This document shows, piece after piece, positions 4,752 through 64,000 of a stretch of DNA of 64,000 nt. Numbering within the stretch: position 1 is the first letter of the stretch; every line of letters begins with the position of its first letter. Under the pieces are notes generated by a model. The model was not told where the DNA came from, did no database searches, and saw only the letters and a list, made by a program, of their open reading frames with translations. The DNA comes from Clostridioides difficile (GTDB taxonomy: Bacteria > Bacillota > Clostridia > Peptostreptococcales > Peptostreptococcaceae): NCBI RefSeq assembly GCF_001299635.1, contig NZ_JRHN01000024.1:1-64000 (forward strand), given 5' to 3'. The translations under genes and the position numbers were made by a program.

Positions 4752-4958
4752 AAATGTAAAAATATATATAAAGAGAGATTAATAGGTTATATTGTTCTCT
4801 TAACTAATTATCAAAAGTAAAATTAATAATATGATTTTTATACAATGTAAAATGTTTAATATTACTATATAATTTTTAAATAATGTACATAATGTATTAA
4901 ATATATATTTTATTAAACAATAAATTAATGTATTATAATATCTGAAGGGGGTGATAAA

Positions 4959-6890: not shown

Positions 6891-7163
6891 TTATATATTT
6901 TACAATTGTAACATATTAGTAATTTATATATATTTTATCACCATTAATCTATAAAAAGTAGACCCTATCTTTATATTTATAAGATTATAGTAATTACTAT
7001 TAAGACCTTTTGTTAAAATATATTATATAAACATCATAAAACAAGTGCAGTATAATAAAATCATTAGAATAACTGAAAAAAGTGTTTATTGTAAGGGTAA
7101 AAGAAATGTGTAGATACAAATTATAATAATATAGGCAAATCTATATAAATAAGGAGAACTATT

Positions 7164-10364: not shown

Positions 10365-10452
10365 ATTTGCTTTGTACATTAAGAAGAAAAGTATAATTTT
10401 TTAAATCACACTTTTCTATAATGAAGTTTTTAATAAATATATAAATGAATTA

Positions 10453-10489
10453 AAATAAATCCCTCTTATAAGATAAAAGGGATTTGTTT
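10453..10489. terminator. Bidirectional terminator between convergent genes
   Basis: AAATCCCTCTTAT...ATAAAAGGGATTT hairpin between the convergent genes ending at 10364 and 10499. The sequence is related to the terminator at 6526-6562. Confidence 0.7.
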
Positions 10490-10498
10490 TAATTAAAA

Positions 10499-11386: not shown

Positions 11387-12127
11387 ATGAACTTATTAGG
11401 TGTTAATGAGGAACAACTTAAAGCTATAAAAACAAATAGCACTCATGTACTTGTAATAGCAGGGGCAGGGGCTGGTAAAACAAAAACTATCAGTAAAAGA
11501 GTTTCTTATTTAATGAAAAAAAGGATTAGCTATAGAAATATATTTTGTATAACATTTACAAGGTATGCTTCTAATGAAATGAAAAAAAGAATTATAAATG
11601 AATCAGAAAATGGAGAAAAGGTATTTGTAAATACATTTCACATGTTTTCAATTTATATTCTAAAAAAATATGGTAATTTTAAAGGATATACTATGATTTC
11701 AGACATTGAAAAAAAGAATTTAATCCAAAATATAACTAAGAGATTTCAAATAAATAAAAGTGATATTTTGATTAATGCAATAAAAAATTATGATATTCAA
11801 AATAAAAATAGAAGTATATCTTTAGCATTAAAAGAATATTTATTTACCCTAAAAAGATATAAATTACTTGATATAGACTTAATACTTCCATTATGCTCTG
11901 AACTTCTAAATGATGAAAATATTGCATCAGAAGTTAGAGATGAAATGAAGTATATTCTTGTAGATGAATATCAAGATTCAAATGATATACAAATAGAAAT
12001 CATAGATAAAATATCACCAAATAATTTATATGTTGTTGGAGATGATTCACAAGCAATTTATGAATGGAATAATTCAAAGGTAGAATATATATTAAATTTT
12101 GAAAAAAATATGGTGCAGAGGTTATAA
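11387..12127 (+). CDS. UvrD/Rep-family helicase, N-terminal part (frame interrupted)
   Basis: 246 residues, start after TGGAGG. Motif Q/Walker A region LGVNEEQLKAI and IAGAGAGKTKTI (~residues 22-34), motif Ia FTRYASNEMKKRI, motif II VDEYQDSND (~193) and motif III VVGDDSQAIYEW are all present, as in an active UvrD/PcrA. The frame stops at 12125-12127, just where motif IV should begin. Motif IV and later motifs continue in the -1 frame downstream. The junction is an A7 run at 12102-12108 read as A AAA AAT, a classical -1 slippery heptamer; slipping there gives ...FEKKYGAEVIRLVKNYRNT. So this is either one helicase made by slippage or a recently frameshifted gene. Confidence 0.8.
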   Translation: MNLLGVNEEQLKAIKTNSTHVLVIAGAGAGKTKTISKRVSYLMKKRISYRNIFCITFTRYASNEMKKRIINESENGEKVFVNTFHMFSIYILKKYGNFKGYTMISDIEKKNLIQNITKRFQINKSDILINAIKNYDIQNKNRSISLALKEYLFTLKRYKLLDIDLILPLCSELLNDENIASEVRDEMKYILVDEYQDSNDIQIEIIDKISPNNLYVVGDDSQAIYEWNNSKVEYILNFEKNMVQRL

Positions 12128-12216
12128 GATTAGTAAAGAACTACAGAAATACAAATCAAATAATAAATTCAGCAAATAAAATAATATCACTTAATTTAAA
12201 TCAAATAAAAAAAGAA

Positions 12217-13071
12217 ATGGTAGGGTTTAAAAATGGCGAAGATATTGAGATTGTTACTACTGATAATCAAGAAATACAAAATATAAAGATAACTTCTCAA
12301 ATTTGTAAGCATGTTTATGGTATTGATGATAAAAACATAGCAATATTATGTAGAACTAATATGGAAATAAAAAAATTATCCAAGGTCTTTATTAATTATG
12401 GTATAGAATTTAATAGCTCGATTAAAGAAAATAGTAATAGTAGGCTTCTTAATATCTTAACTTTAGCATCAAATCCACAAAATGATTTGTTAGCTGAAAG
12501 TATATTGAAACCTTCAGAAGAACAAAAAATAAGAGCATTGAAGGAAAGTATAAGCATATTTGAAAGTATTAAATTTGATAATAAATCGGAAGAAATTTTA
12601 AACTTTGAAAAACTAAATAATTGTATAAAAACATCCACAGCAATAAGAGCATACGAATTAGCTAAGAAGTTATTCAAAATAGAAGATATTGTTTTAAAAA
12701 ATAAAATAAAAAAATGGATCTCAAATAGTACTGTTATTAAACAAAAAAATATTGGATTTATTGAATATCTTTGTTATGAAAATACAAAGGGAGGACAAGA
12801 GTGTTTAAAAGAAAACAATAATAATGTAAACTTATTAACTATTCATTCTTCAAAGGGATTAGAATTTGATGTAGTGATAATTCCAAACTTATATGAAGAA
12901 AATTTTCCTAGAAAAAATGAAAGTTTGGAATCAGCAAGAAGGCTTTTTTATGTAGCATTAACTAGAGCTAAAGAAAAAGTAATATTGTATATTCCTAAAA
13001 ACTCTGAAGAATATGGGAAAAAGATAAAAAATAGAGAACCAAGTATTTTAATAAAAGAAATAACTAACTAG
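12217..13071 (+). CDS. UvrD/Rep-family helicase, C-terminal part
   Basis: 284 residues from the first ATG in this frame. Homology starts earlier, at 12109 (YGAEVIRLVKNYRNTNQII, motif IV), directly after the A7 tract. Visible motifs: NIAILCRTN, motif V LLTIHSSKGLEFDVV and motif VI RLFYVALTRAKEKV. Together with 11387-12127 this makes one protein of ~560 residues, short for UvrD because the 1B/2B insertions are small. The ATG at 12217 has no good ribosome site, so independent translation is unlikely. The downstream small gene at 13086 follows after 14 bases. Confidence 0.75.
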   Translation: MVGFKNGEDIEIVTTDNQEIQNIKITSQICKHVYGIDDKNIAILCRTNMEIKKLSKVFINYGIEFNSSIKENSNSRLLNILTLASNPQNDLLAESILKPSEEQKIRALKESISIFESIKFDNKSEEILNFEKLNNCIKTSTAIRAYELAKKLFKIEDIVLKNKIKKWISNSTVIKQKNIGFIEYLCYENTKGGQECLKENNNNVNLLTIHSSKGLEFDVVIIPNLYEENFPRKNESLESARRLFYVALTRAKEKVILYIPKNSEEYGKKIKNREPSILIKEITN

Positions 13072-49164: not shown

Positions 49165-49318
49165 ATGGAAACTAAGAATGCAGGAATGATGATTTCAGTT
49201 GAAGGTAATATTTGTTGTGGAAACAAGAGGTAATTATCCTGTAAAAAGGAATGTTAATTTAGAAAGTCTAGGAATATTATCTACAATATGTTTAATTTTT
49301 AATAGAAGAAAAAAATAA
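49165..49318 (+). pseudogene. Decayed fragment of an S1-domain protein
   Basis: The frame reading NYPVKRNVNLE (around 49219-49251) matches the C-terminal S1 block of the protein at 55567-56580 (CNYPVKRNVNLEIGKEI), with near-identical nucleotides over ~35 bases. Upstream codons (METKNAGMMISVEG) are in another frame, so the fragment is frameshifted and truncated. The remaining gap (49319-49560) holds no gene. Confidence 0.65.
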
Positions 49319-49560
49319 TTAAACTTTTTTATATCATAATAGTATTTAGAAGAGTTATATCTTTAATTAATTATTTTAACACATAAGATGGTTGTGAAGT
49401 TATAGTGTTTATTCTGTATAAAGCATAATTTTTAGAAAAAAGCATAAGATATTTAATAGTAATTAACTCTAGAAGAATGTAATGCGTTCCTCTAGGGTGT
49501 TACAAAATAAAATTCAAAAATATATACTATGAATAAAATTATGTAAAGAGAGAGATCATC

Positions 49561-49896
49561 ATGGAATTTTTAGGTACTAGAATAAGAGAACGAAGAAAAG
49601 AATTAGGGCTTACAATAGAACAACTATCTGAAAAAATTGATATAGGGTATAACCACCTCAGTAATATTGAAAGAGGTAGAAAAATACCAAGTTTAAGTAC
49701 ATTTTTAGAACTTATAAATGCTTTAGATATATCAGCAGACATAATTCTTAAAGATTCAGTTGAGCATGTTAAACCAAATGTTTTAAATGAAATAACAAAT
49801 AAATTGGAAGATTTGAATCCTGATCAATTGAGAACTGTAGAGGAAGTTTTAACTGTATTAATTAAAAATCTAAAATATTTAGAAAATAAAGATTAA
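49561..49896 (+). CDS. XRE-family HTH regulator
   Basis: 111 residues, GAGAGAG upstream. HTH_3 domain in residues 5-62: TRIRERRKELGLTIEQLSEK, GYNHLSNIERGRKIPSLSTF, LNALDISADIIL-like end. C-terminal helices (~70-105, LNPDQLRTVEEVLTVLIKNL) are typical of plasmid and phage repressors. Own terminator. Target unknown. Confidence 0.85.
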   Translation: MEFLGTRIRERRKELGLTIEQLSEKIDIGYNHLSNIERGRKIPSLSTFLELINALDISADIILKDSVEHVKPNVLNEITNKLEDLNPDQLRTVEEVLTVLIKNLKYLENKD

Positions 49897-49931
49897 AAAA
49901 GAGTTATTTTAATAAGATAACTCTTTTTTAT
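49894..49931 (+). terminator. Terminator after the XRE gene
   Basis: AAAAAAGAGTTA ... TAACTCTTTTTT hairpin. Confidence 0.8.
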
Positions 49932-50010
49932 GTTCATAAGTTATATTATAGCTGCTTTATAGTACCTATAATATAACTTTTTTTATGAATATTTTTAAGA
50001 GGTGATAAAA

Positions 50011-50397
50011 ATGTTTTTTGATAAAAATGAAAGAAAAAATTTTAAAAAACAATTAGAAAGTAAACTAAATTATGATGTGATTTTAGCTAATTGTAGAATA
50101 GAAGGGATAGAGTATCCTTCTATTTTATTTAAATGTAATAGACAAACAAATTGGGGAGTTGTATATGTTGATGAAAAATCAAATGAATATTTAAATAAAA
50201 AATTATATTATTGGGGAAGGTTGTGTAAATATGAAGAAGAATCAAAAGAGCTATTAATTGATACAGTTATAATAAGTGAATTTCTATCTATAGAAAAGGC
50301 AAAAGAGATATTAACTAATGGCGAGCTATATCCTAAGGAATACAGAAATGATATAGATAATAAATCATCTATATTAACAACATCAAATAATGAATAA
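50011..50397 (+). CDS. Hypothetical protein
   Basis: 128 residues from ATG 50011 (AAGAGGTG 5 bases upstream; a GTG at 50002 lies in that site). Starts MFFDKNERKNFKKQLESKLN. A beta-rich middle (GIEYPSILFKC, NWGVVYVDE) and an acidic tail. First of four closely packed small genes of phage/plasmid type (50011-51903). No family recognised. Confidence 0.5.
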   Translation: MFFDKNERKNFKKQLESKLNYDVILANCRIEGIEYPSILFKCNRQTNWGVVYVDEKSNEYLNKKLYYWGRLCKYEEESKELLIDTVIISEFLSIEKAKEILTNGELYPKEYRNDIDNKSSILTTSNNE

Positions 50398-50412
50398 TAT
50401 TGTGGAGGAAAT

Positions 50413-50850
50413 ATGTTAAATAAATTTGGAAAATACAAAATAGAATTTGTAGCTAATATTGAGGATATATTTATTCATATAACAATTTATAAAAAACTTG
50501 TGATAGAAGAAGTATCAGAGATATCACTTTTTCAGCTAGGAAATTATAGTGAAATAAAGCTTTTGTCAGATGGTATTTATATAAGCAGTAATATGTTAGG
50601 AACTATAGTTATACAGAATAGTTTTAGACATAAGTATGAGATTAAAAAATTAATAAAGAAAAATACAATAGCTGAAGATTATATAACAAGTTTAAATGAA
50701 AGCGAGTTGTATAAATCAGTTCTAGGAAATGAAGAATTTGAAATTATAAATGAGGATATAAGTTTTGTTTTTAATACTCTTAAGAAGAAATATAGTGATT
50801 CAGATTATTTTGAATTAAATAATATTACTTATAAAATTACAGAACTTTAA
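50413..50850 (+). CDS. Hypothetical protein
   Basis: 145 residues, GGAGG upstream, 15 bases after the preceding gene. Beta-strand-rich first half (YKIEFVANIEDIFIHITIYK), helical end. No family recognised. Confidence 0.5.
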   Translation: MLNKFGKYKIEFVANIEDIFIHITIYKKLVIEEVSEISLFQLGNYSEIKLLSDGIYISSNMLGTIVIQNSFRHKYEIKKLIKKNTIAEDYITSLNESELYKSVLGNEEFEIINEDISFVFNTLKKKYSDSDYFELNNITYKITEL

Positions 50851-50860
50851 AGGTGATCAG

Positions 50861-51301
50861 ATGAAAATAAAAACATTTAGAGGAAAATCTATAAAAAATA
50901 ATCACTGGATATATGGACATTATTATTCAACAGGAGTTAATGATACTAAAATACATAAGATAGTATATAACACAGGAAAACCAGATTTAATAGATCATCA
51001 TATACCAATAAAAAGAAATACGCTAGGAGAAATTACATTTAAAAAGGATTCTGATGGAACTAATATATATTCTGATGATATAGTTTATTCAATAGTATAT
51101 ATAGCTAAAAATGATATGAAAGACTTGTATTTTGATAAAAAGTCAATAATATGGATAATAAAATTTCATGATGGAAGTTGGAAAATTTATGATGGTGATA
51201 GCTACTATTTATTATTTAATGAGTCAAATGAGATAACAATTATAGGTAATAAAGATGATAATCAAGACTTATTAGATAAATATAATTTATTGAAGAGGTG
51301 A
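50861..51301 (+). CDS. YopX-family protein
   Basis: 146 residues. The N-terminus IKTFRGKSIKNNHWIYGHYY, the central HHIPIKRNTLGEITFKKDSD with GTNIYSDDIVY, and the end ITIIGNKDDNQDLL match the YopX pattern (FRGK...W.YG, T.GE.TG..D..G..I.EGDI, IGNI.ENPEL). YopX proteins are frequent in phages and mobile elements; function unknown. Confidence 0.8.
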   Translation: MKIKTFRGKSIKNNHWIYGHYYSTGVNDTKIHKIVYNTGKPDLIDHHIPIKRNTLGEITFKKDSDGTNIYSDDIVYSIVYIAKNDMKDLYFDKKSIIWIIKFHDGSWKIYDGDSYYLLFNESNEITIIGNKDDNQDLLDKYNLLKR

Positions 51302-51903
51302 TGTATTTGAGTGAGAAAAATTATATTATAGAGTATTCATTAAAAGATATAAGAGAAAAAATGAAGCTTAATAATAGAAATATTTTTAAGGCTTTAGAGT
51401 TATTAGAAAATACTCAGTATCATCTTATACAACAAATTATGAAAAATGAGCAAATAATAGATAGAATGAACTTAGATAATATAGAAAATTATTCAGAAAA
51501 ACTAATTGAAGTAAAAGAATATGTTAAAAACAAAAAAATAAAATTTTGGACAAGTATGTTGCCACCAAATTTGTTTTCAATTGAATCATCAAGATATTAT
51601 GCTGATTATAAAGAGCTAACTCAACAATTAATAATTTATAAGCTTAGTGACATTGATGAACATTTTGACAAGGTTATTATAAAGTACAAATTATATTTAG
51701 ATTACTTAAGATATGATGTTGATAATTATTTCTTTAAGAATTATACTGATGCAATCAGGAAATCAGACTTAATTAAAGATGATGATTATTCTAAAGTAAA
51801 GATATTAATTGAAGGAGGATGTGATGAAAGATTAGGCTTAGAAATAATCATTTATAATCAAAGTTTCTCTGATGAATATGCAAATGAGATTTTAATTCTG
51901 TAA
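51301..51903 (+). CDS. Hypothetical protein
   Basis: 200 residues from ATG 51301, overlapping the YopX stop by one base. A TTG at 51307 has better spacing from GAAGAGGTG and may be the true start. All-helical, Lys/Asp/Tyr-rich, no signal or motif recognised. Ends the small-gene operon. Confidence 0.5.
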   Translation: MYLSEKNYIIEYSLKDIREKMKLNNRNIFKALELLENTQYHLIQQIMKNEQIIDRMNLDNIENYSEKLIEVKEYVKNKKIKFWTSMLPPNLFSIESSRYYADYKELTQQLIIYKLSDIDEHFDKVIIKYKLYLDYLRYDVDNYFFKNYTDAIRKSDLIKDDDYSKVKILIEGGCDERLGLEIIIYNQSFSDEYANEILIL

Positions 51904-51910
51904 TATAAAA

Positions 51911-52006
51911 TTCAATATTGAATTTTTTTATTTTTCAATATTGAATTTTATACGTTTTTCAATATTGAAAAATGAAAAATAGAGAGTATTGAATTTCAAT
52001 ATTGAA
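51911..52006. promoter_or_regulatory. Four copies of the palindrome TTCAATATTGAA
   Basis: Perfect 12-bp palindromes at 51911-51922, 51934-51945, 51958-51969 and 51995-52006, with a half-site at 51987. The first three are spaced 23-24 bases. They lie between the small-gene operon and the replication-relaxation gene, an operator array or part of oriT. The stretch on to 52215 holds no other clear feature. Confidence 0.7.
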
Positions 52007-52215
52007 AAAAAAGAAAGAATCTAGTATTTACAATGTGTACAGAGTTCGATAGCATTAAACAAAAAACACAGGTTTATGTTAGCTGTCAAAAATAGCTAAA
52101 ATTAGTGTACTGATAAGAGATTATTTAAAGCTCAAAAATTTTGCAAGATAACTCTACTAAAAAAAGCTCTATTTACAATAAAAATAATAATGAAAAGAAG
52201 GGAGTTTTTAAAAGA

Positions 52216-53136
52216 GTGAGTAATTTAATGATTAAAGAACGAGATTTGAAATGTCTCAGATTATTAAATGAATATGGTGCTGTGAAAAGAAAATATCTAC
52301 ATATAATTTATCAATTAGATGATGTAAATTCAAAGAGGTGTAATCAATATAAATATGCACGAATAAATAAATTAAAACAAGAACAATACATAGAAGAAAC
52401 TGACAAAATATTCATATTAGGAACAGAAGGTAAAAAATATTTAAATCTAATTGGAGATGAATTACATTATAGAAATCACCTTAAAATGAGTAAGAGAAAA
52501 TTTTTATCAGAAGTACATGAGCTGTTATGTAAGTTTAATAATTTTAAAATTACATTAGGCAGAACCAAAATACAATTAAATCAAGATGGAATAGAATTCA
52601 TAAAGCTTTTTTATGGTAAAGTTATTTCAAATGATGATAAAGAATATCTTGTATATAAGATAAAAAAAGAGTCTACTAATGCTTATATAAAAAGAGTAAT
52701 TAATGAATTTAATGATTTTATGGCAACAAATATTATAATAATATTTGAGACAGAAAGGCAATTAAATTATTATAAAGAAATTGATGGACATAAGAGGACA
52801 ATAAAAAAAGAAATATTAGTTATGTATGAAGAAGAATCTTTTAAGGTCTTAAATTTAATTTCTGATAATAAGCTTAATAATGAAAATGTATATAGACAAT
52901 TAAAAAATAATATTGATATTAAGTACATAAAAAATTATTTATATATAAACAATGTAATAACATTTAATTTTCTTGAAGATGATTTTGTAAATGAAGAATT
53001 GACAGATTATTTTATAAAAGAAAAAAGAATTGATAATTATTATATATTATGTTTTGAACATCAAAAAGATAAAATTAGAAATAAATTTAAGAATGCAAAG
53101 CTAGTTAGTCTAAGTATCAATTCTATGTATAAATAA
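52216..53136 (+). CDS. Replication-relaxation (Replic_Relax) family protein
   Basis: 306 residues from GTG 52216 (AAGGGAG 11 bases upstream; an in-frame TTG at 52141 adds 25 low-complexity residues). The N-terminal winged helix (MIKERDLKCLRLLNEYGAVK, LHIIYQL, ARINKLKQEQYI) matches PF13814 members, which sit next to coupling-protein genes and are linked to plasmid relaxation/mobilisation. The rest is alpha/beta (FKITLGRTKIQLNQDGIEFI, YLVYKIKKE). It precedes the VirD4 gene, so it is the best candidate for the DNA-processing factor in the window. Confidence 0.6.
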   Translation: MSNLMIKERDLKCLRLLNEYGAVKRKYLHIIYQLDDVNSKRCNQYKYARINKLKQEQYIEETDKIFILGTEGKKYLNLIGDELHYRNHLKMSKRKFLSEVHELLCKFNNFKITLGRTKIQLNQDGIEFIKLFYGKVISNDDKEYLVYKIKKESTNAYIKRVINEFNDFMATNIIIIFETERQLNYYKEIDGHKRTIKKEILVMYEEESFKVLNLISDNKLNNENVYRQLKNNIDIKYIKNYLYINNVITFNFLEDDFVNEELTDYFIKEKRIDNYYILCFEHQKDKIRNKFKNAKLVSLSINSMYK

Positions 53137-53272
53137 CATGAAATATAACTATGTAGAGATGTTTTATAATTATTTATGGTGTTTTTATATGATAACAAGC
53201 TAAAAATTGAATAAGACCTATTATAATACAATATTTAGTTTCTATAGCTGAATATTGTATTTTTTTTAGGAG

Positions 53273-55546
53273 GTGATTAAATTATCAAAGATTTATCTAA
53301 TTTTAAGTAACATATTAAAAAAGATACAAAGAAGTAGTCAGAAAAAGTATTTAGCACTTATAGCTACAATAATATACATGGAAGCTCCTATTGTAATTAT
53401 GATTAGAGAAGGATTCTTTAATGTAAATTTATTAGAGCTATATTTTTCTCCTATTAAAGTCTTGTTTAAGTTATTTAATTTCCAAATAATATTTACACTT
53501 ATAAATCTTAATATAACTTTCTTAATATTTGGATTCATAATAAGGGCCATATTCATTGTAAATAAATCAGGTTCTTTTAATTTTGAGGAGAAAGAGAAAA
53601 AAATAGATTGTGCAAAAAATTTAGGAACATATGGAACTGCTGAATGGATGGGAAGAAGCGAAATTAATAAATTACAGGATTATATTTCAATTAATACAAA
53701 TGAAGGTATAATATTTGGATATTTTAGGGGTACAAAGGATATAATCACTTTGCCTAAAAATACATTCAATAATCGAAATGTAGCTGTATTTGGAAGTTCA
53801 GGTTCAATGAAGTCTCGTAGTTTTGTTATTCCAAACATTTTAAATCTCATTCGCTCAGAAGAAAGTATGTTTATAACAGATCCAAAAGGAGAGCTTCTTA
53901 GAAAATGTTCTAGTATATTAGAAAAGTTTGGTTACATAGTAAAGGCATTAAATTTAAACAATATTGAATGCTCAAATCAATGGAACATATTATCAACTGT
54001 AGAAGATGATATGAGTGCTATAACATTTGCACAATCAATTATGCTTAATACAAAAGAAAATAAAAAAGCTGGAGGTGATTTTTGGGAAAAAGGACAAGAA
54101 AACTTATTAAAGGCATTAGTTTTATACATAATAAAAGAACTTCCAGAAAATGAAAGAAATATGACTTCACTATATAGTTTTCTAACTGCAAAAGATGCAG
54201 CTAAAAAACTAGAAATGAGATTTAAATTTCTTAGAGAAGACCATATTGCGATTCAGCCATATAATATATTTTTAGAAAGCTCTGAGAATACTAAAATAAG
54301 ATCTGGAATGATCTCTGGATTAGCAACTAGATTACAATTATTCCAGTCTAAAAAATTTAAAATGCTTACATCAGAAAATGAGATAGACTTAGGGATTCCA
54401 GGAAGAAAAAAATGTGCTTATTTTGCTGTTTTACCAGATTCACATGCTTCATTTGATTTTATGGCCTGTTTATTTTTTTCTATGGCTTTTATAAAATTGA
54501 TATCAATAGCAGATAGAAAACCAACAGGAAAATTAGATAAACAAGTAAATTTCATATTAGATGAGTTTCCTAATATAGCTCAGATTCCTGACTTTGAAAA
54601 GAAAATGGCTACAATACGTTCAAGGGGTATAAATGCGTTTGTAATATTTCAAAATATAACACAACTTCAAAATAGATATCCAGAAGGAAAATGGGAAGAT
54701 ATTTTAGGGAACTGTGACAATCATATATTTTTGGGATGTAATGAAAATACAACTGCTAAATTTATCTCAGACACTTTAGGTTCTATGACTATTAAAGATT
54801 TTTCAGAAAGTAAAGATAAATATAGTTTTAATCCATTAGAAAAGAAAATATCCGAAAAATATGTAAAAAGAAATATTTTAAATATGGATGAGGTTAGAAG
54901 GATAAATCCGTTTCATTCTATATTAATGCTAAAAGGGCAAAATCCTATAAAAATGAGTAAGATGGATTACACGAACCATGAACTTAGTGATGAAATGGAA
55001 GAAATACCAATATATTATATGCTCAAAGAATGGTCCAAAGAATTCCATAAAGATTGCCTATATTCTTTTAGAGATGAAATAACAATTGATGAACATATGG
55101 AAGAAGATATGAAAGAAAGAAATATAAAAGCTCTTCAAGAGTTAGATATGTTGATAGCAGAATGTGAAAATAAATCTTTTGAACAGAGTAATTTTAATAC
55201 CAATGAATTAAGTAATCAGATATTTAATATAAAATCTATTAGTAATGAAACTAATCCTGAAAAAGATATAAAAATAAACTTAGAAAAAAGTGATCTCATA
55301 CAGGATGAGTATAATTTAGAATTTTATGAGTATGAAGCACAACAAATAATATTAGAAGAAGAATATTATAATGAATTAGAAATACATGAAGATAAAGGGA
55401 TTTCTAATGAAAGAGATTTAGTTGTAGAAGATGTTGGAGGAGATATACATATAAATATAGCTCTAAACAATGAAGAAGATGAAAATGATGATATAGATAT
55501 AGAAAATAAAAAAGAATTGATGTCTTTATCTATGTTCAACAAATAA
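53273..55546 (+). CDS. virD4: VirD4/TraG-type coupling protein (CD1115-like)
   Basis: 757 residues. Two N-terminal membrane helices (~18-36, ~62-95). Walker A VAVFGSSGSMKSRSFVIPN (~172), with Met in place of the usual Gly, as I recall for the clostridial CD1115 group. ITDPKGELLRK, Walker B NFILDEFPNIAQIPDFEKKM (~426), NAFVIFQNITQLQNRYP and FLGCNENTTAKFIS. The C-terminus (~640-757) is acidic and variable, perhaps for relaxosome recognition. The GTG at 53273 lies inside the AGGAGG site; the codon at normal spacing is TTA, so the true start is uncertain. Confidence 0.92.
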   Translation: MIKLSKIYLILSNILKKIQRSSQKKYLALIATIIYMEAPIVIMIREGFFNVNLLELYFSPIKVLFKLFNFQIIFTLINLNITFLIFGFIIRAIFIVNKSGSFNFEEKEKKIDCAKNLGTYGTAEWMGRSEINKLQDYISINTNEGIIFGYFRGTKDIITLPKNTFNNRNVAVFGSSGSMKSRSFVIPNILNLIRSEESMFITDPKGELLRKCSSILEKFGYIVKALNLNNIECSNQWNILSTVEDDMSAITFAQSIMLNTKENKKAGGDFWEKGQENLLKALVLYIIKELPENERNMTSLYSFLTAKDAAKKLEMRFKFLREDHIAIQPYNIFLESSENTKIRSGMISGLATRLQLFQSKKFKMLTSENEIDLGIPGRKKCAYFAVLPDSHASFDFMACLFFSMAFIKLISIADRKPTGKLDKQVNFILDEFPNIAQIPDFEKKMATIRSRGINAFVIFQNITQLQNRYPEGKWEDILGNCDNHIFLGCNENTTAKFISDTLGSMTIKDFSESKDKYSFNPLEKKISEKYVKRNILNMDEVRRINPFHSILMLKGQNPIKMSKMDYTNHELSDEMEEIPIYYMLKEWSKEFHKDCLYSFRDEITIDEHMEEDMKERNIKALQELDMLIAECENKSFEQSNFNTNELSNQIFNIKSISNETNPEKDIKINLEKSDLIQDEYNLEFYEYEAQQIILEEEYYNELEIHEDKGISNERDLVVEDVGGDIHINIALNNEEDENDDIDIENKKELMSLSMFNK

Positions 55547-55566
55547 AAAACTTGGAGGATAAAAAA

Positions 55567-56580
55567 ATGGAAGAAATAAGAATAAATGAGGAAACAGTAA
55601 AAATAGAGGAAAGTAATGAAGTTAGAAATATCGAGCTTCCAGATTCAGAGTTGATACAATTTATGGAGAAAGACAAAATAAATGAAATTGAAGAAGTAAA
55701 TGTTGATAGTACAAATGTAACTACTAATGAAGAAAATACATTAATTGAACAACCTAAAAGAAGAAATAATTATACTGGAGAAAGACAAAAAATATCTGAA
55801 TATAGAGATTTAATGTATCAAAGATATATTGATACTTGTGTAATACAATCTGTAGAAAGAGAAAACAAAAATGGTGATATATATGCTTGTGCTTACAAAG
55901 ATGAATTAAAGATAAAGATACATGTAGAAGAAATAGATTTATATTTACCTTTATCTGTTAGAAAATTGGAAGGAAGTCAACTTATAGCTGCTAAAGTAAG
56001 AGGTTTAAGAAGAATGGTTGGTTCTACTGTATCATATTTGGTAATATCTATAGATGAAGAAAATGAGGTTGTTTATGCTTCTAGAAAAAGAGCATTAGAA
56101 ATATTAAGAAAAGCTAGACCTCATAATGTAAATGATATTGTAGTAGCTAAAGTTATAGATGTAAATGATTATTATGCTGTGACAGAATTTGATGGCCAAA
56201 TAGGCACTATTGGGAAAAGAGATATATCTAACTCTAGAGTTTATAGAATACAAGATTACTTTAAAATAGGTGATGAAGTAAATTTAAAGATATTAAAATT
56301 AGATGAAGAAGGATGCTTTTTAAGTAGAAAAGAACTTGAAGAAGACATATTTGATAAATATATTATTGCTAAAAAATATTATTCAGAAAGAGGTGTATAT
56401 ATAGCAAAGATAAAGGAGCTTTCAGAAAAACTAATATATCTTGAACTTAGAAGAGGATTAACTATAGCATGTAATTATCCTGTGAAAAGGAATGTTAATT
56501 TAGAAATAGGAAAAGAAATAACTGTATTATTAAGAAAGATAGACAAAGAAAAGAAACAATTATCTGGTCGTATATTTTAG
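55567..56580 (+). CDS. S1 RNA-binding-domain protein of the transfer region
   Basis: 337 residues from ATG 55567 (TTGGAGGAT upstream). The first ~75 residues are acidic and disordered. S1-type barrels follow: DIVVAKVIDVNDYYAVTEFD then GQIGTIGKRDISNSRV (~195-260), and a second, VYIAKIKELSEKLIYLELRR (~278-337). The region ~85-190 may be a divergent first barrel. S1 proteins accompany VirD4 in clostridial elements, possibly binding RNA or ssDNA; exact role unknown. A degraded copy of its end lies at 49165-49318. Confidence 0.75.
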   Translation: MEEIRINEETVKIEESNEVRNIELPDSELIQFMEKDKINEIEEVNVDSTNVTTNEENTLIEQPKRRNNYTGERQKISEYRDLMYQRYIDTCVIQSVERENKNGDIYACAYKDELKIKIHVEEIDLYLPLSVRKLEGSQLIAAKVRGLRRMVGSTVSYLVISIDEENEVVYASRKRALEILRKARPHNVNDIVVAKVIDVNDYYAVTEFDGQIGTIGKRDISNSRVYRIQDYFKIGDEVNLKILKLDEEGCFLSRKELEEDIFDKYIIAKKYYSERGVYIAKIKELSEKLIYLELRRGLTIACNYPVKRNVNLEIGKEITVLLRKIDKEKKQLSGRIF

Positions 56581-56648
56581 TATAAAAAACGATTTTTCAA
56601 AAGAAAAATTTGAATTATCCCTAAAAAATAAGTAATAAAAATCTAAAA

Positions 56649-56706
56649 TTGGAGTTAAACTTAACATTTGATTAGAAAAAATCAATTTTAAAGCAACTCC
56701 TTTTTT
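56649..56706 (+). terminator. Terminator after the S1-domain gene
   Basis: GGAGTT ... AACTCC outer stem with inner TTTGAT / ATCAATTTT pairing, followed by T6. A related sequence without the closing arm occurs at 62055-62110, on the other side of the kinase-helicase operon. Confidence 0.6.
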
Positions 56707-56817
56707 AGATTTCAGATGTTAATCATATAAAAAAATCTAACTTACCACTAACACCTTGCTTTTGTTTAAAATCTTTGTCTAAAGTTAATTACCATATTAT
56801 AAGTAAATCGATTATAT

Positions 56818-58293
56818 TTAAGATATAGACATGTCCATTCTTTCTTCCAAATTTAAAATTATACTTTTAATTACCTCTTGATGTTCTGTATATATACCAA
56901 GCTCTTGTCTGAATCCCCACTTTGGATTTCCTTTAAATGATAGCCAGTTAAAACTGGTTACAACCATAAAGTCTCTGTCACAAACTAGTACTTTTTCATG
57001 TGTATTTGCAAGTCTAGTAATTTTTAATCTACTATTTTTTTCTTTTATTTTATTTAGTCTATATATTATTTCCTTATCTGAATCTTCTTTATCTGATATT
57101 CCATACCCAATGTATACACTTACCTTTCTTCCAATAGCTTGCTTTATTAGATTCTCTATCTCAGAATCCAGTCCTGACTTTTTTATCCAAGGTGATACTA
57201 CTATTACAAATTCTTTAGCGTTCTTTAGCGTTTTAACTAATAATTCTCTATGTTCATATGTGTGAACTACTCTCTGTTCGCTATTTAATTTATTCTTTAG
57301 CGTAGAAATTTCTTTTTCAAGGGCTCTAATACGTTCAACCAATCTATACTTCTCTTCTGAATCAATAAAATCTTCTGATAAAATATTTTCACTTTCTTTT
57401 ATTTCAGCTTCTATCTTTCCTACTTCTTCTTCTACTTTTTCCCTATTTTTTTCATGTTCCAATGCATTATCTATAATATCTTTAGGAAGTTTTTGTGTAA
57501 AACTATTTTGTTCATTGACATCTTCAAAAATAATATTTTCATCTAAATCAATTTGTTTTATACTATTATTTTGCATTTTTAGAATTATCTCTTCATATTC
57601 AGGGACTCTATCGCCTTTTTCGAATACCTTTATATCCATTTCTTCTCTATCAATACTACAAAAAACTAATATGTTTAACTTTTTATATTCAAGGTAAGAT
57701 TTATTTATGGAGTTAATTGATAAAATATTTCCATCATACTTATCATCCTTAGCATGTTCTTTGTTATATTTTTTTATAATCCTAGAGACAGCATTTTTCT
57801 TTATATCTTTCAATTCATCTCTAGTTTTATAAGGTTTTAGTATTCTTAAATTAAATTTTTTTGCTTCTTTAACATTATAAAATTTCACATTACTCATAAA
57901 AATATTTTTTGTTAGTCCATCAGCATAAATCTGTATATTTAGTTCTTCAGGAACAAGTAAATTTAATTCTGCTAAAACATTCCTTCCTTTTGGTGTTATT
58001 AATACATCATTCTCTGAATTAACTTTAACCAAATCTAGTCTATTCAACTCTACTATATTATCATATATTATGTTTTTATCTAATCCTAGAAACTTACTGA
58101 TTTCCTCTATTTCCTTTATTTCATTACTAAGAAATTTCAAACAAAACTCCTGAACTATACCTAATTCCTTCTTTTTTTGCATAGTAATATTTAAATCCAT
58201 TTTATATACTGGACATGCACATTCACAGTATTTCACTAATTCATACCCTGGCATACTTTTTGCATATTTTTTAGCTATTTCTTCTATCCTCAT
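56818..58293 (-). CDS. PLD-family (HKD) nuclease with wHTH N-terminus
   Basis: 491 residues. N-terminal winged helix (~35-100, EFCLKFLSNEIKEIEEISKF, LDLVKVNSENDVLITPKGRN). A coiled coil lies at ~285-335 (EAEIKESENILSEDFI, LVERIRALEKEISTLKNKLN). The C-terminal PLD domain has ILVVSPWIKK-type strand (EFVIVVSPWIKKSGLDSEIE) and HEKVLVCDRDFMVVTSFNWL: HxKxxxxD at ~432. One HKD suggests a dimer acting as a nuclease. The start lies 2 bases after the kinase-helicase stop and its AAGGAGG lies inside that gene, so the two are coupled. Likely effector of the pair. Confidence 0.75.
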   Translation of the reverse strand: MRIEEIAKKYAKSMPGYELVKYCECACPVYKMDLNITMQKKKELGIVQEFCLKFLSNEIKEIEEISKFLGLDKNIIYDNIVELNRLDLVKVNSENDVLITPKGRNVLAELNLLVPEELNIQIYADGLTKNIFMSNVKFYNVKEAKKFNLRILKPYKTRDELKDIKKNAVSRIIKKYNKEHAKDDKYDGNILSINSINKSYLEYKKLNILVFCSIDREEMDIKVFEKGDRVPEYEEIILKMQNNSIKQIDLDENIIFEDVNEQNSFTQKLPKDIIDNALEHEKNREKVEEEVGKIEAEIKESENILSEDFIDSEEKYRLVERIRALEKEISTLKNKLNSEQRVVHTYEHRELLVKTLKNAKEFVIVVSPWIKKSGLDSEIENLIKQAIGRKVSVYIGYGISDKEDSDKEIIYRLNKIKEKNSRLKITRLANTHEKVLVCDRDFMVVTSFNWLSFKGNPKWGFRQELGIYTEHQEVIKSIILNLEERMDMSIS

Positions 58294-58295
58294 TA

Positions 58296-61200
58296 CTATA
58301 CCTCCTTTAGTTCACATGAAGTTTTATCTTTATTAATATATTCTAATACTTTATAAAATGGATTCTCTTTCTGATTCCATAAAAACTTATTTTTAGCTAC
58401 ACAAGCATGATCTCCTACTAATATTAGTAGTTCTTTTGATCTAGATAAAGCGACATTTAGCCTTCTCATGTCCTTTAAGAAACCAATTTTACTATCTTTA
58501 TTACTTCTAACAATGCTATATAATATTATATCTGTCTCTCTACCTTGAAATGCATCCACAGTATTTATGTCTACTTTGATTCTCTTAAATATCGATTTAT
58601 ATTTAGATTCATATTGTTTTCTTATCATACTTTTTTGAGCTTGATAGCCAGCTATAATTCCAACTTCTTTATCAATATTATTTTTAAGACAATCTTCATC
58701 TATTTTTTCTAGAGTATCAAAAATAATGTCTATTTCACATTTATTTATGTATGTATCTTTTATCTTTTCTTCTAATCTATTTTGTTTTCTGGATGTAGAT
58801 AGCCAAACTACACTTTTTCCCCTCCACATATTCAATCCATGATCTCTATCTTCAAATGTAGTTCCAGATTTTAATTCTCCATTGTAGAAAACATTACTTA
58901 TCAAATTACCTATTCCAGGACTCATTCTATATTGTTTGTCTAACATAATCTTGCATGAACTATTTATATTATTAGCAATATATTCAAATAAGCTTTCTTC
59001 TAATTCAGCTTTATTTATATTAAGCTTCTTAAGCTCCTCTTCTTCTAAGTCTCTATCTATAATTGGTGGAAGCTGCTTATGATCTCCAACTAATATTATT
59101 CTTTTTCCTAATACCATTGGAACTAATATCTCTGGAGGTGTTGCTCTACCAGCTTCATCAATTATTACCCAGTCAAATACTAAGCTTGCACTAGATGCAA
59201 TATTAGCAACACCTAAACAAGTAGCTCCTATAATTGTTGCACTATTTACTGCTTCATTTAAGAATTCTTCACATTTGACTATTCTATCAGACCATTCCTT
59301 TATAATTGGTTCTATAGTAGATAATTTTTTATAATCATATTCTTTTTCTTTTATTTTGAATTCTATATCATTTTTTATAGAATAATATTCTTTATCATTA
59401 TTTATACCTAACATATCTTTACTATTTTGAATTTCATTTAATATTGATTCTTTGTTTTTTGTTATTTTAGATATTTCTTCTTCTAATTCAGCTCTTAAAT
59501 TACTTATATCGTTTGCTTCATCTATATTTCTTAAAAATTCATTACCTAAATTTAGATAATCTATCATAAAATCATTAATAATTATTTCAAGACTACTATC
59601 TATAATATCGTTTTCTTTTGACTTTATTTTCAAAGAAAATTTCTTTATCTCTGAGAATGCTTTATTTACTAATATAAATTTTTTATTTATTTCATCCAAT
59701 TTAGTTTTGTTATTTAAAATTTTATCATCTACAGTATTTATTTCAGCTTCTAGAGAATCTATTTTATTTATAAGTTTATAGTTATTAACAATTAATGGAT
59801 CTATTTGGATTTTATCTTTAAATTTTTCTAGGTATAATTTGCTCTTCTCAATTACTGTATTAGTCCATTCTTCCAAAAACTCTTCTATCATGTAGTCATG
59901 TACATTTTCTGATAATTTCTCCCTTCTACCTATTCTTATCATAGATATATCAGGTACTTCATCTTTTATTTTTATTAAAGCATGATCAACTGCTACATTT
60001 GACTGTGAAGAAATTAGTATTCTACTATCTTTATTTTTCTTTAGTATTTGAGTAACTATTTCAGTTATAAACGTTGTTTTCCCAGTTCCAGGTGGTCCCT
60101 GTAATAAAAATATGTCTTCACTCTGAAGAGCTTTTAAAACACTTTCTTTTTTTAAATCATCTATTTTAGATGATTTAAATACTATATCTGAATGTAATAA
60201 GTTACTACTATTTCTCGCTTTTTGAGGGTCAATTAATATTTTACTTAAATTTTGATTAATACTTTCATTATACCTAACTACTGACATAGCTTTCTCTTGC
60301 CTTTTAAGTGCATATTCCATCAAAGCTTTATCAACAGATAGTTCACCACTTGTAGATAGAAGAGATAAATCTATATCCTTATTAAGGGTTATAATAACTT
60401 CTCCATCCTTAAAATCTGAGAAGTAACCTACATTATGTTGCTTTTGGATATTATCCTTACAAGTCATGGTTAATGGTTGATCTTCTATATAGGGAACCTC
60501 CTCTATAGAATCCAGCAACTCAACTCTTATTTGAGAACTATATTTATTTACATCAAAAGTCTCATATCTAAGCGTAAATTTAGCTTTTTCTATATTATCC
60601 CTTTGGAGTCTTATTACTTTGTTCCATTTATCAACTAGCCCTTTACTTGATAAATTATCTTGCTTAATTATGTCTAGATGTTTATTATATATGATTATAC
60701 GCTCAACTAATTCATTTATATTATAATTTATAATTGTAGGTACTCTATCTGACACATACCATTTAAAATCAACAGGCATAGATAAATCCTTATTATTCTC
60801 ATGTGTTTCTGAGTATCTTGTATTTAAATAAATTGCTGTTAAACTATTTTTAGTTTTATTATTTATGACACATTTAAATGTAAATTGTTTACCATATAGA
60901 TTTAGTGAAATTTCTCCAGTATTAGATTCTGTTTTATTAATGTTAATAAAACTTTCTGAGTCTAAATCTTCCTGTACTATCTTTATAGCTTCATTTCTAT
61001 CAGTAGAGTTTATATAATTTAATTGATATAGTTTAGTAACAACACTATTAGTTAAACCTATATAGTAAAATTCTTCATTGTTTGTTTTATACTCATTATT
61101 GAAAAAGTTCATTATATCATTAATATTTGAAATACGCTCACTAGCTTTAGGTTCTATCATCTTATTTATAATCTCTTTGTATTCAAACTTTATAGATGTA

Positions 61201-61936
61201 TCTTCTTTTATCTTTGTATATATATCAATTTCTGGGTTTATAATGATATTTGATAGTATTTCATAAATTATTATCCCTAGTGAATATATATCTGATTTAT
61301 GAGTTATGTCTATACCTAACTTCTGCTCAGGAGATGCATACTTGTGACTTATATAATTCTTTAATGTGTAATCACTATAAAATGTATCTTTCAATTTACT
61401 TACACCATAATCAATTACTTTTATGTTAAGTTGTTTATCAATTAATATATTTGATGGTTTCAAATCTCTATGTATTATATTTTTACTATGTGAATACCTA
61501 AGAGCATCTAGTATTTGCTTTATTACAATTATTTTATCAGAATCGTTTAAAATACTATCGTTTATATATTCTTTTAAATTTGTGCCTTCAAAATACTCCA
61601 AAACTATAAAATACATTTTGTTAATATTGTCAAACCCTCTATCTAATATTTTTATTATATTTTTATTATATTTTTATGTTCTAAAATTTGTAAACTCTCA
61701 ACTTCTCTATTAAAGATTTTCAAGTTTAATGTATCATCATAAGAGACCTTATCAAATAACTTTACAATACATATTGAATTTTCATCAATTTTTTTACTCA
61801 GATCTTGACATAGGCATACAGTTGTCATATTTCCATCATTCAAACTTTTTATAATATTATACTTATTATTTATAACACCCATCATGTCCTCCATTATATT
61901 AAAAATTTCATCTAATATTTTACTGTTTATATACAT
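58296..61936 (-). pseudogene. Protein kinase-SF1 helicase fusion, split by an 11-bp tandem repeat
   Basis: Two frames: 61936-61655 (kinase N-lobe, ending LEHKNIIKI, Lys in ICIVKLF) and 61616-58296 (1106 residues). Deleting one 11-bp unit at 61646-61677 joins them as HKNIIKILDRGFDNINKMYF, a ~1209-residue protein. Kinase: HRDLKPSNILI, VIDYGVSKL, ASPEQKLG, DIYSLGIIIYEIL. Helicase, Upf1/Dna2-like: LLQGPPGTGKTTFI (~505 of the long frame), WVIIDEAGRATPPE (~818), GDHKQLPP, DKQYRMSPGI, TVDAFQGRETD, RRLNVALSRSKELL (~1058). A long coiled coil lies between motifs I and II. Coupled to a PLD nuclease; defence role inferred. Confidence 0.8.
61646..61677. repeat. 11-bp tandem repeat (2.9 units) breaking the kinase frame
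   Basis: ATATTTTTATT at 61646-61656 and 61657-61667, then 10 of 11 bases at 61668-61677. An 11-base unit changes the frame with each gain or loss. Loss of one unit makes the kinase continuous. Confidence 0.85.
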
Positions 61937-62144
61937 ATTTTATCACTTTTTTAATAAATATGTTTTATTCTTATACTTAAATCTCCTTAATATTAAAACT
62001 TAAGATATTAATATTAACAAAGAGGTAATAAGAAATAACATATAGAAATCCAAAAGGGGGCTGAACTAAAATTTGATTGAAAAAGATTGATTTTGAAACA
62101 ATTTATTTTTAACTAAATTTATATAGAAAGTGAGGAGATAACAA

Positions 62145-62774
62145 ATGCTAAAAAGTTATTCAATTAATGAATATATTAAAATACTTAGATTTTGCACATC
62201 AGAGCAGCTAATAAGACTAGATCCAAAAGATATAGAAAATGTAACTCCCAAAAGTAAAATCAAAAAGATTAATAATATAAAAAAATTTGCATTAAAAAAA
62301 GGACAAAGAATTGTAAAACCAGGCTATAGTTTTTACTATGATAATGAGAACGATATTTTCATAGATGTATTAGCTGACCAAGACAAAATTAACCAGGATG
62401 AACTAATATTAACAAATGTATATATAGAGTTTAAAGATATGATGAATATATGTTACTTCAATAAAGATAATGGTGTTATTCCAAGAATATATTTTTACCA
62501 AATCTATGAAAATAATGATGAAGAAGACTTGAAAAGATTTGATATTATTTATTGCAATCCTTCAGATCAAAGCTTAGTAGAAATATTAGTTCAGACAGAA
62601 GAAGATATAAAAAATATATTGGTAGTTTTAAATGAAAATAATCTTACAAGTTATCGAGAATTTAAATTATTTAAAAATAAAAGGATTGTATTTGTCTTAG
62701 TAAAAGATAGAAGATTGCTGTTAAGTGATACCCTGTCTGACATAATACAAAAATATAATAATTATCATAGATGA
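62145..62774 (+). CDS. Hypothetical protein
   Basis: 209 residues, GAGGAGA upstream. N-terminal helix-rich part (SINEYIKILRFCTSEQLIRL), basic stretch (KSKIKKINNIKKFALKKGQR), then beta-rich and acidic segments. No signal peptide or known motif. It reads away from the kinase-helicase operon and is followed by the CPBP protease gene 55 bases later, so possibly one operon with it. Confidence 0.5.
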   Translation: MLKSYSINEYIKILRFCTSEQLIRLDPKDIENVTPKSKIKKINNIKKFALKKGQRIVKPGYSFYYDNENDIFIDVLADQDKINQDELILTNVYIEFKDMMNICYFNKDNGVIPRIYFYQIYENNDEEDLKRFDIIYCNPSDQSLVEILVQTEEDIKNILVVLNENNLTSYREFKLFKNKRIVFVLVKDRRLLLSDTLSDIIQKYNNYHR

Positions 62775-62777
62775 TAA

Positions 62778-62814
62778 AATTTATTGGTCAATAGATTTTA
62801 TTGGCCAATAAATA
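62778..62814 (+). terminator. Hairpin between the two genes
   Basis: ATTTATTGGTCAATA ... ATTGGCCAATAAAT inverted repeat in the 55-base gap. No T run, so it may be an operator or weak attenuator. Confidence 0.4.
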
Positions 62815-62829
62815 TGAATAGGAGAATTT

Positions 62830-63498
62830 ATGAGAAAGTATAGGGATATTTTTTTTGTGACAATCATACATACAATATTAATTTTGACATCTACATCATT
62901 AGTAACTATAATAACAAATAGAGTTACTAATGTGTATGTGTATTCGGTTTTAAATATAGTACTATTAGTAATAATATATTACAATATGTATGTTTTAATA
63001 TATAAATTCCCAGTAGATAAGATTAAATATAAAAATAATAAAAAGAAAATTACACCCTACATAACAATACTACTTTTTATAATGGTTACAAATTCAATAC
63101 TACTAAGTAAACTTGAAAATACTTTTTTAAATTTAAATCTATATTCTGTACTCCCGAAATTAAACTTAATACTTGATACTTCATCTAAACTTATCATTTA
63201 TTTATTATCTTTATTTATTCAGACTTGTTTAATTGCTCCTATAGCAGAAGAATTAATTTATAGGAAATTTATATTAAATAATCTACTTGATAATTGTAAT
63301 GCTTTCAAGTCTATAATATTATCTTCTTTTTTATTTAGTATATATCATTTAAATCTATTACAAGGCATCAATGCAATGATAATAGGTGTCTTTCTAGGCT
63401 ATTTATACCATAGGACTTGTTCAATTAATATATGTATCTTATTACATTTTATTAATAATTTTATTAACTTCATTATTTTGACAATCTATATTACATAA
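62830..63498 (+). CDS. CPBP-family intramembrane metalloprotease (Abi-type)
   Basis: 222 residues, GGAGA upstream. About six membrane segments. Catalytic blocks: IAPIAEELIYRKFILNNLL (EExxxR at ~139), SSFLFSIYHLNLLQGI (His ~172) and CSINICILLHFINNFI (His ~205), all needed for CPBP activity. Members mature prenylated proteins in eukaryotes and in bacteria serve bacteriocin immunity or signalling. The substrate here is unknown. Confidence 0.8.
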   Translation: MRKYRDIFFVTIIHTILILTSTSLVTIITNRVTNVYVYSVLNIVLLVIIYYNMYVLIYKFPVDKIKYKNNKKKITPYITILLFIMVTNSILLSKLENTFLNLNLYSVLPKLNLILDTSSKLIIYLLSLFIQTCLIAPIAEELIYRKFILNNLLDNCNAFKSIILSSFLFSIYHLNLLQGINAMIIGVFLGYLYHRTCSINICILLHFINNFINFIILTIYIT

Positions 63499-63719
63499 AA
63501 AATCTTTAGTTTTTCTAAAACATTTTAAAATATGACATTTATGCTATAGAACAAGTTAATAATATGCATGAAGTTATTGATTTAGTTGACATTAAGAATA
63601 AAGACTCAGAAGATATAGCCATTCAATGCACAGTAAATATATGGTAATAATTGGATTTGATTATATAAAATTATTGCTGTAACATTTAATTAAATAAACA
63701 AATGATTGGGGCGATAATT

Positions 63720-64000
63720 ATGTATTTGAAAAGATTATCAAAATCAGAATTAATTATAATGAAATTTATTTGGAGTTTAGATACAGGGGTAAAATCATAT
63801 GATGTTGTTAATTATATGAAAGAAAAATATAGCTGGTCAGAAAAAACAACACTAAAGACTTTGTCTAAGTTATCAAATAAAAGATTCTTATATATTCAAG
63901 AAACAAGTCAATGTACATACTATACAATTTCAATTAAAGAAGATAAGTATTCTGAATTTATATCGCAAAAAATACATAAGCTCTTAGGGTGCAACTCTAT
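63720..64000 (+). CDS. BlaI/MecI-family repressor (C-terminus off window)
   Basis: 93 residues visible, open to the window end. GGGGCG precedes ATG 63720. YLKRLSKSELIIMKFIWSLD, KYSWSEKTTLKTLSKLSNKR and CTYYTISIKED match the winged helix of BlaI/MecI. It resembles the repressor at 1172-1555 in length and layout but only moderately in sequence. The gap before it (63499-63719) has no supported gene, only a 27-codon ORF at 63564 without a ribosome site. Confidence 0.75.
   Translation, partial: MYLKRLSKSELIIMKFIWSLDTGVKSYDVVNYMKEKYSWSEKTTLKTLSKLSNKRFLYIQETSQCTYYTISIKEDKYSEFISQKIHKLLGCNS

What the first reader, a model, noticed from the sequence alone, without database searches (positions are those of the whole stretch)
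58296..61936. Kinase-helicase fusion switched off by an 11-bp tandem repeat: possible phase-variable defence gene
The N-lobe of a Ser/Thr kinase lies in one frame and the rest of the kinase plus a Upf1-like SF1 helicase in another. The break is at 2.9 copies of ATATTTTTATT. Removing one unit restores an uninterrupted kinase (HKNIIKILDRGFDNINK) with all catalytic motifs. An 11-base unit cannot keep frame, so unit number acts as an on/off (or start-shift) switch. All later motifs are intact, arguing against old decay.
Basis: partly seen in the sequence, partly recalled or inferred. Interest (0 to 1): 0.82.

Follow-up and report, generated by a model that had tools for sequence, protein, structure and literature searches.

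The report
Plasmid defence gene broken by repeat
A plasmid, probably of a relative of Clostridioides difficile, carries a known type of anti-virus defence locus whose main gene is interrupted by an extra copy of an 11-letter repeat; it looks like an ordinary recent copying slip, and nothing yet shows that it is a built-in on/off switch.

Summary
On the minus strand a Ser/Thr kinase–Upf1-like helicase gene is split at a perfect 2.9-copy 11-bp array (61646-61677): the N-lobe frame ends in TAA at 61657-61655, the rest is open from 61673 to 58296. It is a frame-broken mkoA of a type I Mokosh locus; mkoB (PLD nuclease) follows at 56818-58293. The 5.5-kb module is present here, and a related soil Clostridioides plasmid has 12 bp at that place. 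Against the intact homologue L044 the two pieces share five residues, encoded twice 11 nt apart, and nothing is missing: one unit too many.

The switch interpretation is not supported. Six of six intact homologues read lack such an array; the 1.9-copy precursor arises from codon usage with P = 0.13; every frame of the pure array contains TAA TAA, so larger arrays, including the proposed 4.9 units, stay closed. No second isolate and no reads were available, so variation in unit number is untested. Best reading: Mokosh off in this sequence through a recent, perhaps occasionally revertible, slippage mutation.

The parts
56578..62092 (.). Mokosh module: 5,515-bp segment present here; the related plasmid pESS17301a has 12 bp at that place (gain here or loss there not tested)
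   Evidence: blastn blocks window 49266-56577 = p 122542-129879 and window 62093-64000 = p 129892-131815, in the reverse-complemented record
58296..61882 (-). mkoA (kinase plus SF1 Upf1-like helicase), frame-broken; likely start ATG 61882 (listed ORF start 61936)
   Evidence: PADLOC MkoA PDLC03920 E 4.9e-224 for the downstream piece; GGAGG 5 nt before ATG 61882; alignment to L044
61655..61936 (-). upstream piece: kinase N-lobe (conserved Lys and helix-C Glu), ends in TAA 61657-61655; 75 aa if read from ATG 61882
   Evidence: PD-T4-6 kinase profile PDLC04047 positions 1-76, E 2.4e-8; Pfam Pkinase positions 1-63, E 0.0024, 17.8 bits, below the curated 31.7; length
61646..61677 (-). perfect 11-bp tandem array, 2.9 copies, at the frame break
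   Evidence: its 22-mer occurs once in the assembly
58296..61673 (-). downstream piece: open frame with kinase C-lobe (HRD, DYG) and helicase (GPPGTGKT, DEAG, QYRM); first ATG 61616 without a Shine-Dalgarno match
   Evidence: Pkinase from profile position 73, AAA_11, AAA_12
56818..58293 (-). mkoB, PLD-like nuclease, open frame, own ribosome-binding site AAGGAGGT at 6 nt, starts 2 nt after the mkoA stop
   Evidence: PADLOC MkoB PDLC03922 E 8.7e-76; Pfam PLDc_2 E 4.9e-7
55552..56580 (+). left neighbour: S1-domain gene of the plasmid backbone
   Evidence: Pfam S1; 97.6% identical protein in pESS17301a
62145..62774 (+). right neighbour: backbone hypothetical gene
   Evidence: 90.4% identical protein in pESS17301a, where it directly follows the S1 gene

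Best explanation
This is a plasmid-borne type I Mokosh locus (mkoA-mkoB), probably in a Clostridioides species. Its mkoA is out of frame through one extra unit of an 11-bp tandem repeat, most likely added by slipped-strand mispairing at a short direct repeat that arose by chance from AT-rich codons. Shown: the frame break, the array, the family matches, the open mkoB, the place in the plasmid, and the one-unit excess relative to an intact homologue. Inferred: translation stops after about 75 codons, so no active kinase-helicase is made and the system is off in the sequenced isolate; MkoB may still be made from its own ribosome-binding site; the change is recent; loss of one unit could occur at low frequency, but there is no sign that the array is maintained as a switch.
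For: Family. One-unit excess: the N piece aa 21-93 aligns to L044 aa 5-76 and the downstream frame aa 5-1125 to L044 aa 72-1187; the five shared residues are encoded twice, 11 nt apart. No stop or frame break elsewhere in the 1,125-codon frame or in mkoB. With a stop-making fraction of 0.058, the absence of stops caps neutral change since the break at about 52 substitutions (1.6% of sites) in the downstream piece, indels not counted. A 10-nt self-match at period 11 arises in 13% of codon-usage draws for this peptide. No comparable array in 6 of 6 intact homologues read. A second 11-bp array, 3.36 copies, lies away from open frames in the same genome. Every frame of the pure array has TAA TAA. 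Of 54 backbone genes matched in pESS17301a, 52 are intact here, 1 is cut by the window end and 1 (a UvrD-like helicase) is broken, so the plasmid as a whole is not decaying. Precedent for a low-copy repeat inactivating a gene reversibly: icaC of S. aureus (PMC4117637, passages).
Against: No reads and no second copy of this module. Of the 3 arrays with a unit not divisible by three found in 404 kb, only this one overlaps an open frame, which a selection argument could also claim. The break falls in a defence gene, a class in which phase variation is known. The broken UvrD-like helicase is a second length change in a simple tract on the same plasmid, which could mean sequencing error or slippage proneness.
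Confidence: 0.7

Rival explanations
1. Phase-variable defence gene: unit number changes often and reversibly, keeping a mixed population of Mokosh-on and Mokosh-off cells.
For: Perfect tandem array with a period not divisible by 3 exactly at the break; the other motifs intact; a low-copy precedent exists (icaC, passages).
Against: Only 2.9 units; no other allele seen, though no second copy was available; no array of 1.85 or more copies in 6 of 6 intact homologues read; every frame of the array carries TAA TAA, so by frame arithmetic only one unit count can be open; the 1.9-copy precursor is expected by codon usage at 13%.
Confidence: 0.1
2. Assembly or sequencing error: the real gene has one unit fewer and is intact.
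For: The assembly is a draft of 66 contigs, its read type unknown to me; one other gene on the contig has a one-base tract difference.
Against: The 32-bp array is shorter than a usual short read (general knowledge); 52 of 54 matched backbone genes are intact, so the error rate is low; the array is perfect and its 22-mer occurs once in the assembly.
Confidence: 0.1
3. The break leaves a kinase-less but working system: translation or transcription restarts inside the gene and gives a helicase that works with MkoB, as in type II Mokosh, which has no kinase (recalled).
For: The best promoter-like match of the region (11 of 12) overlaps the array; the helicase also matches MkoC, the type II protein, E 6.9e-35; Mokosh-like loci with the kinase on a separate ORF exist (L041, L042).
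Against: Promoter-like matches in the region are at chance level (38 found; mean 46.6, sd 7.2 in shuffles); ATG 61616 has no Shine-Dalgarno match; in L041 and L042 the division falls between the domains, not inside the kinase N-lobe; a C-lobe without N-lobe would probably misfold (inference).
Confidence: 0.07
4. Programmed -1 ribosomal frameshifting at the array joins the pieces.
For: The downstream frame is -1 relative to the upstream one and overlaps it by about 18 nt.
Against: No X XXY YYZ heptamer in the upstream frame and no A run longer than 5 at the array; the 6 intact homologues are single open frames.
Confidence: 0.02

Closest known systems
Mokosh type I (MkoA kinase-helicase plus MkoB PLD nuclease)
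   Same: The downstream mkoA piece and mkoB match PADLOC MkoA and MkoB at E 4.9e-224 and 8.7e-76; mkoB follows mkoA directly, as in L044, L028 and L038, whose second genes also match MkoB
   Different: mkoA is frame-broken here; it is a single open frame in the 6 homologues read (L028, L038, L039, L040, L044, L045)
icaC tetranucleotide-repeat switch of Staphylococcus aureus (PMC4117637, passages read)
   Same: Intragenic low-copy tandem repeat whose change in unit number shifts the frame and inactivates the gene
   Different: There reversal and several unit numbers in isolates were shown; here a single sequence is known, and the array itself carries stops in all frames
Phase-variable restriction-modification genes with simple sequence repeats (search listings only)
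   Same: Defence-related genes with frame-shifting repeats
   Different: Those tracts are usually long and vary between isolates (recalled); neither is shown here

Membership tests
Mokosh type I | SF1 Upf1-like helicase of the MkoA family | tested here: met
   PADLOC PDLC03920 E 4.9e-224; AAA_11 and AAA_12; best solved relatives NAM7/Upf1. None of the 21 NCBIfam models matched reached its cut-off; the best is an IGHMBP2-type helicase, 254.8 of 348.9 bits
Mokosh type I | Ser/Thr kinase sequence before the helicase (that this marks type I is recalled) | tested here: met
   kinase encoded directly before the helicase, its N-lobe and C-lobe in two pieces
Mokosh type I | Kinase and helicase in one intact protein | tested here: not met
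   two frames; so it is filed as a frame-broken copy of a type I locus, not as a working system
Mokosh type I | Adjacent MkoB with PLD-like nuclease domain | tested here: met
   PADLOC PDLC03922 E 8.7e-76; PLDc_2. No NCBIfam match
Mokosh type I | NERD domain (PF08378), listed for Mokosh type I in PMC10952713; whether it is required is not known to me | tested here: not met
   no NERD match at E 0.001 in the two mkoA pieces or mkoB; passage
Mokosh type I | Protects against phage | not testable with these tools
   needs plaque assays
Simple-sequence-repeat phase-variation locus | Tandem repeat in the gene with a unit not divisible by three | tested here: met
   11-bp array
Simple-sequence-repeat phase-variation locus | Unit number varies between or within isolates | not testable with these tools
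   no second copy: 0 matches of the flank in viral contigs and genome contigs; of 8 genomes of the genus only the window's own has a match over the whole query, and the other 7 have no MkoA match at E 1e-60; no reads
Simple-sequence-repeat phase-variation locus | Array kept in homologues | tested here: not met
   no array of 1.85 or more copies (period 7-20) in 6 of 6 intact homologues read
Simple-sequence-repeat phase-variation locus | Open frame recurs at every third unit number | tested here: not met
   all three frames of the pure array contain TAA TAA

The most novel reading that the evidence does not exclude
The array is a contingency switch on a mobile Mokosh locus: slippage keeps a small share of cells with the system on and the rest off, so that the plasmid pays little for its defence cargo yet keeps it available under phage attack. 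With stops in all frames of the array the switch would have a single open state and every expansion would be off, a one-sided design.
Probability: 0.1. Interest if true: 0.6.

Novelty: new member of a known kind. Interest (0 to 1): 0.3.

Why it matters
It places a type I Mokosh locus as cargo on a large plasmid, probably of Clostridioides, with a 12-bp counterpart in a related plasmid for comparison, and shows how a defence system can be silenced by a single slip in AT-rich coding DNA. If the unit number proved variable, it would be a phase-variable Mokosh. In the held library two papers contain both 'Mokosh' and 'phase vari' (listing only); each has a single occurrence of Mokosh, and neither was read, so whether the idea is in print is not settled beyond that search.

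Tried and rejected
Rejected: decay of the whole plasmid (57 of the 129 annotated features of pESS17301a, picked by me, nearly all from the shared blocks, were tested; 54 matched, 52 intact, 1 cut by the window end, 1 broken; 3 had no match). Rejected: ribosomal frameshifting. Rejected: that a 10-bp tandem (57211-57232, 2.2 copies) in mkoB is a second switch; mkoB is open and, by eye, of the same length there as in L044.

Led nowhere: the search for related loci in genome contigs (13 stretches matched a pattern, none a relative); exact flank pattern in viral contigs and genome contigs (0 each); plasmid blastn (3 records, none with 80% of the query); plasmid tblastn (679 records with a match, 40 listed; 16 hold 80% or more of the query, and all 16 are listed: 7 cyanobacteria, 4 actinobacteria, 5 rhizobia, no Clostridioides). 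Structure prediction was not used. Whole-genome statistics could not be done, only 404 kb.

Choice of homologues: the order, class and phylum searches (E limits 1e-60, 1e-120, 1e-120) gave 19 places outside the window's genome. 6 run from profile position 9 or lower to 1104 or higher without a stop and were used as intact homologues; 2 (L041, L042) have stops inside and were read as divided loci; 11 start at profile position 318 or later, 2 of them with a stop, and were not examined further.

Limits: the cap on neutral change counts stop-making substitutions only; the codon counts come from 11 genes, among them the broken gene's own downstream piece and mkoB. Limit: its 'inORF' label for the window array came from an antisense + frame; one search corrected this.

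Full report
What was checked. The window is positions 1-64000 of a 144,085-bp contig (C16) of a 4.28-Mb, 66-contig assembly. The genus search covered 8 genomes, and the nearest named plasmid is pESS17301a (NZ_CP067354.1) of soil Clostridioides sp. ES-S-0173-01: 85% of window 1-25000 at 97.1%, and main blocks at 85-99% that together align about 51.5 of the 64 kb. It has a VirD4-like gene, but MOB-suite types pESS17301a as non-mobilizable, so conjugation is not established.

The break is real in the sequence. The upstream frame (61655-61936, minus) ends in TAA at 61657-61655; the downstream frame is -1 relative to it, open from 61673 to the stop at 58296, and its first ATG is 61616. The break lies in a perfect array of 2.9 copies of an 11-bp unit, 61646-61677. 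Perfect arrays of this strength are rare: 2 in the window and none in 16 simulated windows. In 404 kb of the genome there are 4 with 2.5 or more copies; 3 have a unit not divisible by three, and only this one of the 3 overlaps an open frame of 100 codons or more.

The start needs correcting. ATG 61882 has GGAGG at a spacing of 5 nt, while ATG 61936 has only GTGAT, and homologue L044 begins at about the matching place. The broken gene would thus make 75 residues.

What it is. The downstream piece matches PADLOC MkoA over profile positions 86-1107 of 1112 (E 4.9e-224); the upstream piece matches kinase profiles at positions that the downstream piece lacks (for PDLC04047, 1-76 and 87-207). In Pfam the upstream piece matches the kinase domain only weakly (E 0.0024, below the cut-off). 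Motifs seen in the alignment (names recalled): the lysine and helix-C glutamate of the N-lobe, HRD, DYG in place of DFG, GPPGTGKT, DEAG, QYRM. The next gene, 56818-58293, matches MkoB (E 8.7e-76) and the PLD-like domain. No NCBIfam model reached its cut-off for mkoA, and none matched mkoB. I file this as a frame-broken copy of a type I Mokosh locus; that type I has a kinase and type II does not is recalled from Millman et al. 2022, which I did not see. Papers seen in passages place MkoA and MkoC among SF1 Upf1 helicases (PMC10925250), list a PLD domain for types I and II and a NERD domain for type I (PMC10952713; no NERD match here), and state that Mokosh degrades viral transcripts (PMC11291487).

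Where it sits. Window 49266-56577 and 62093-64000 are contiguous in pESS17301a but for 12 bp, so a 5,515-bp segment with mkoA and mkoB is present here and absent there; gain here or loss there was not tested. A type I restriction system and a Fic-like candidate defence gene lie further along the same contig (L051 3159-9184 and 10398-11099).

How the break arose. Against L044, an intact homologue from another family of the same phylum (38% identity), the upstream piece reaches aa 76 and the downstream frame starts at aa 72. The five residues in common are encoded twice, 11 nt apart, so one unit is in excess and nothing is lost. The unit looks like a slip product: a self-match of 10 nt at period 11 appears in 13% of random synonymous versions of this stretch under plasmid codon usage, and 6 of 6 intact homologues read (L028, L038, L039, L040, L044, L045) have no comparable array anywhere in the gene. 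Another 11-bp array of 3.36 copies sits away from open frames in this genome. No further stop or frame break lies in the downstream frame or in mkoB, which limits neutral change since the break to about 52 substitutions, 1.6% of sites, in the downstream piece, if only stop-making substitutions are counted.

Is it a switch? Nothing shows it. No other copy of the module was found, so variation in unit number is untested. Each frame of the pure array reads into TAA TAA; larger arrays therefore stay closed, and by frame arithmetic (inference, no allele was built) only one unit count can be open. Precedent allows a low-copy repeat to act as a reversible switch: in icaC of S. aureus unit number varied in 9 of 103 genomes, and no variant was seen in 45,000 divisions (PMC4117637, passages). 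For C. difficile, the passages of a review that I saw describe promoter inversion (PMC11868660). The papers with Mokosh and phase variation together are two (listing only); of 5 papers with Mokosh and Clostridioides difficile none appears, by title, to be about C. difficile (listing only).

Consequence. With mkoA stopped at about codon 75, the kinase-helicase should be absent; mkoB keeps its own ribosome-binding site (AAGGAGGT, 6 nt) and may still be translated. A restart at ATG 61616 has no Shine-Dalgarno match; the promoter-like site over the array is the best in the region, but such sites are at chance level there (38 found, 46.6 expected). Loci with kinase and helicase on separate ORFs exist (L041, L042), yet they are divided between the domains, not within the kinase.

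Results against my reading. Of the non-3n arrays found in the stretches examined, this one alone overlaps a gene; the gene belongs to a class in which phase variation is known; and a UvrD-like helicase on the same plasmid is also broken, by a one-base tract difference, while intact in pESS17301a. These keep a switch, or sequencing error, possible at about 0.1 each.

Verdict. A new member of a known kind (type I Mokosh locus), in an off state through a probable recent slip; the switch is an untested possibility.

Noticed in passing
window 11387-13071 (+): UvrD-like ATP-dependent helicase split by a single-base length difference in an A tract; the pESS17301a copy is intact (561 aa). The only broken gene among the 54 matched backbone genes, apart from 1 cut by the window end.
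   Followed up: partly
L041 1435-6583 and L042 1483-7010: Mokosh-like loci of the same class with the kinase on its own ORF, followed by a helicase ORF (MkoA profile) and an ORF with a weak MkoB match; in L041 the preceding ORF also has a weak match to the MkoA kinase part.
   Followed up: partly
L051 3159-9184 and 10398-11099 (contig positions 67159-73184 and 74398-75099): Type I restriction-modification genes (R, M, S) about 5 kb beyond the Mokosh module on the same contig, followed by a Fic-like candidate defence gene (PDC-S04).
   Followed up: partly
window 6902-10501: Segment without a blastn block of 300 bp or more in pESS17301a, with a 1066-aa UvrD/GajB-like helicase (PADLOC GajB E 2.4e-11) whose C-terminal part looks TPR-like by eye.
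   Followed up: no
window 4257-4762: 6.6 copies of a 77-bp tandem repeat between genes, with several matches in pESS17301a; may be an iteron-like or partition site.
   Followed up: no
window 61665-61694 (-): Best promoter-like match of the region (TTTACA, 18 nt, TATAAT) overlaps the 11-bp array, but such matches are at chance level here.
   Followed up: no
window 57211-57232: 10-bp tandem of 2.2 copies inside the open mkoB.
   Followed up: partly
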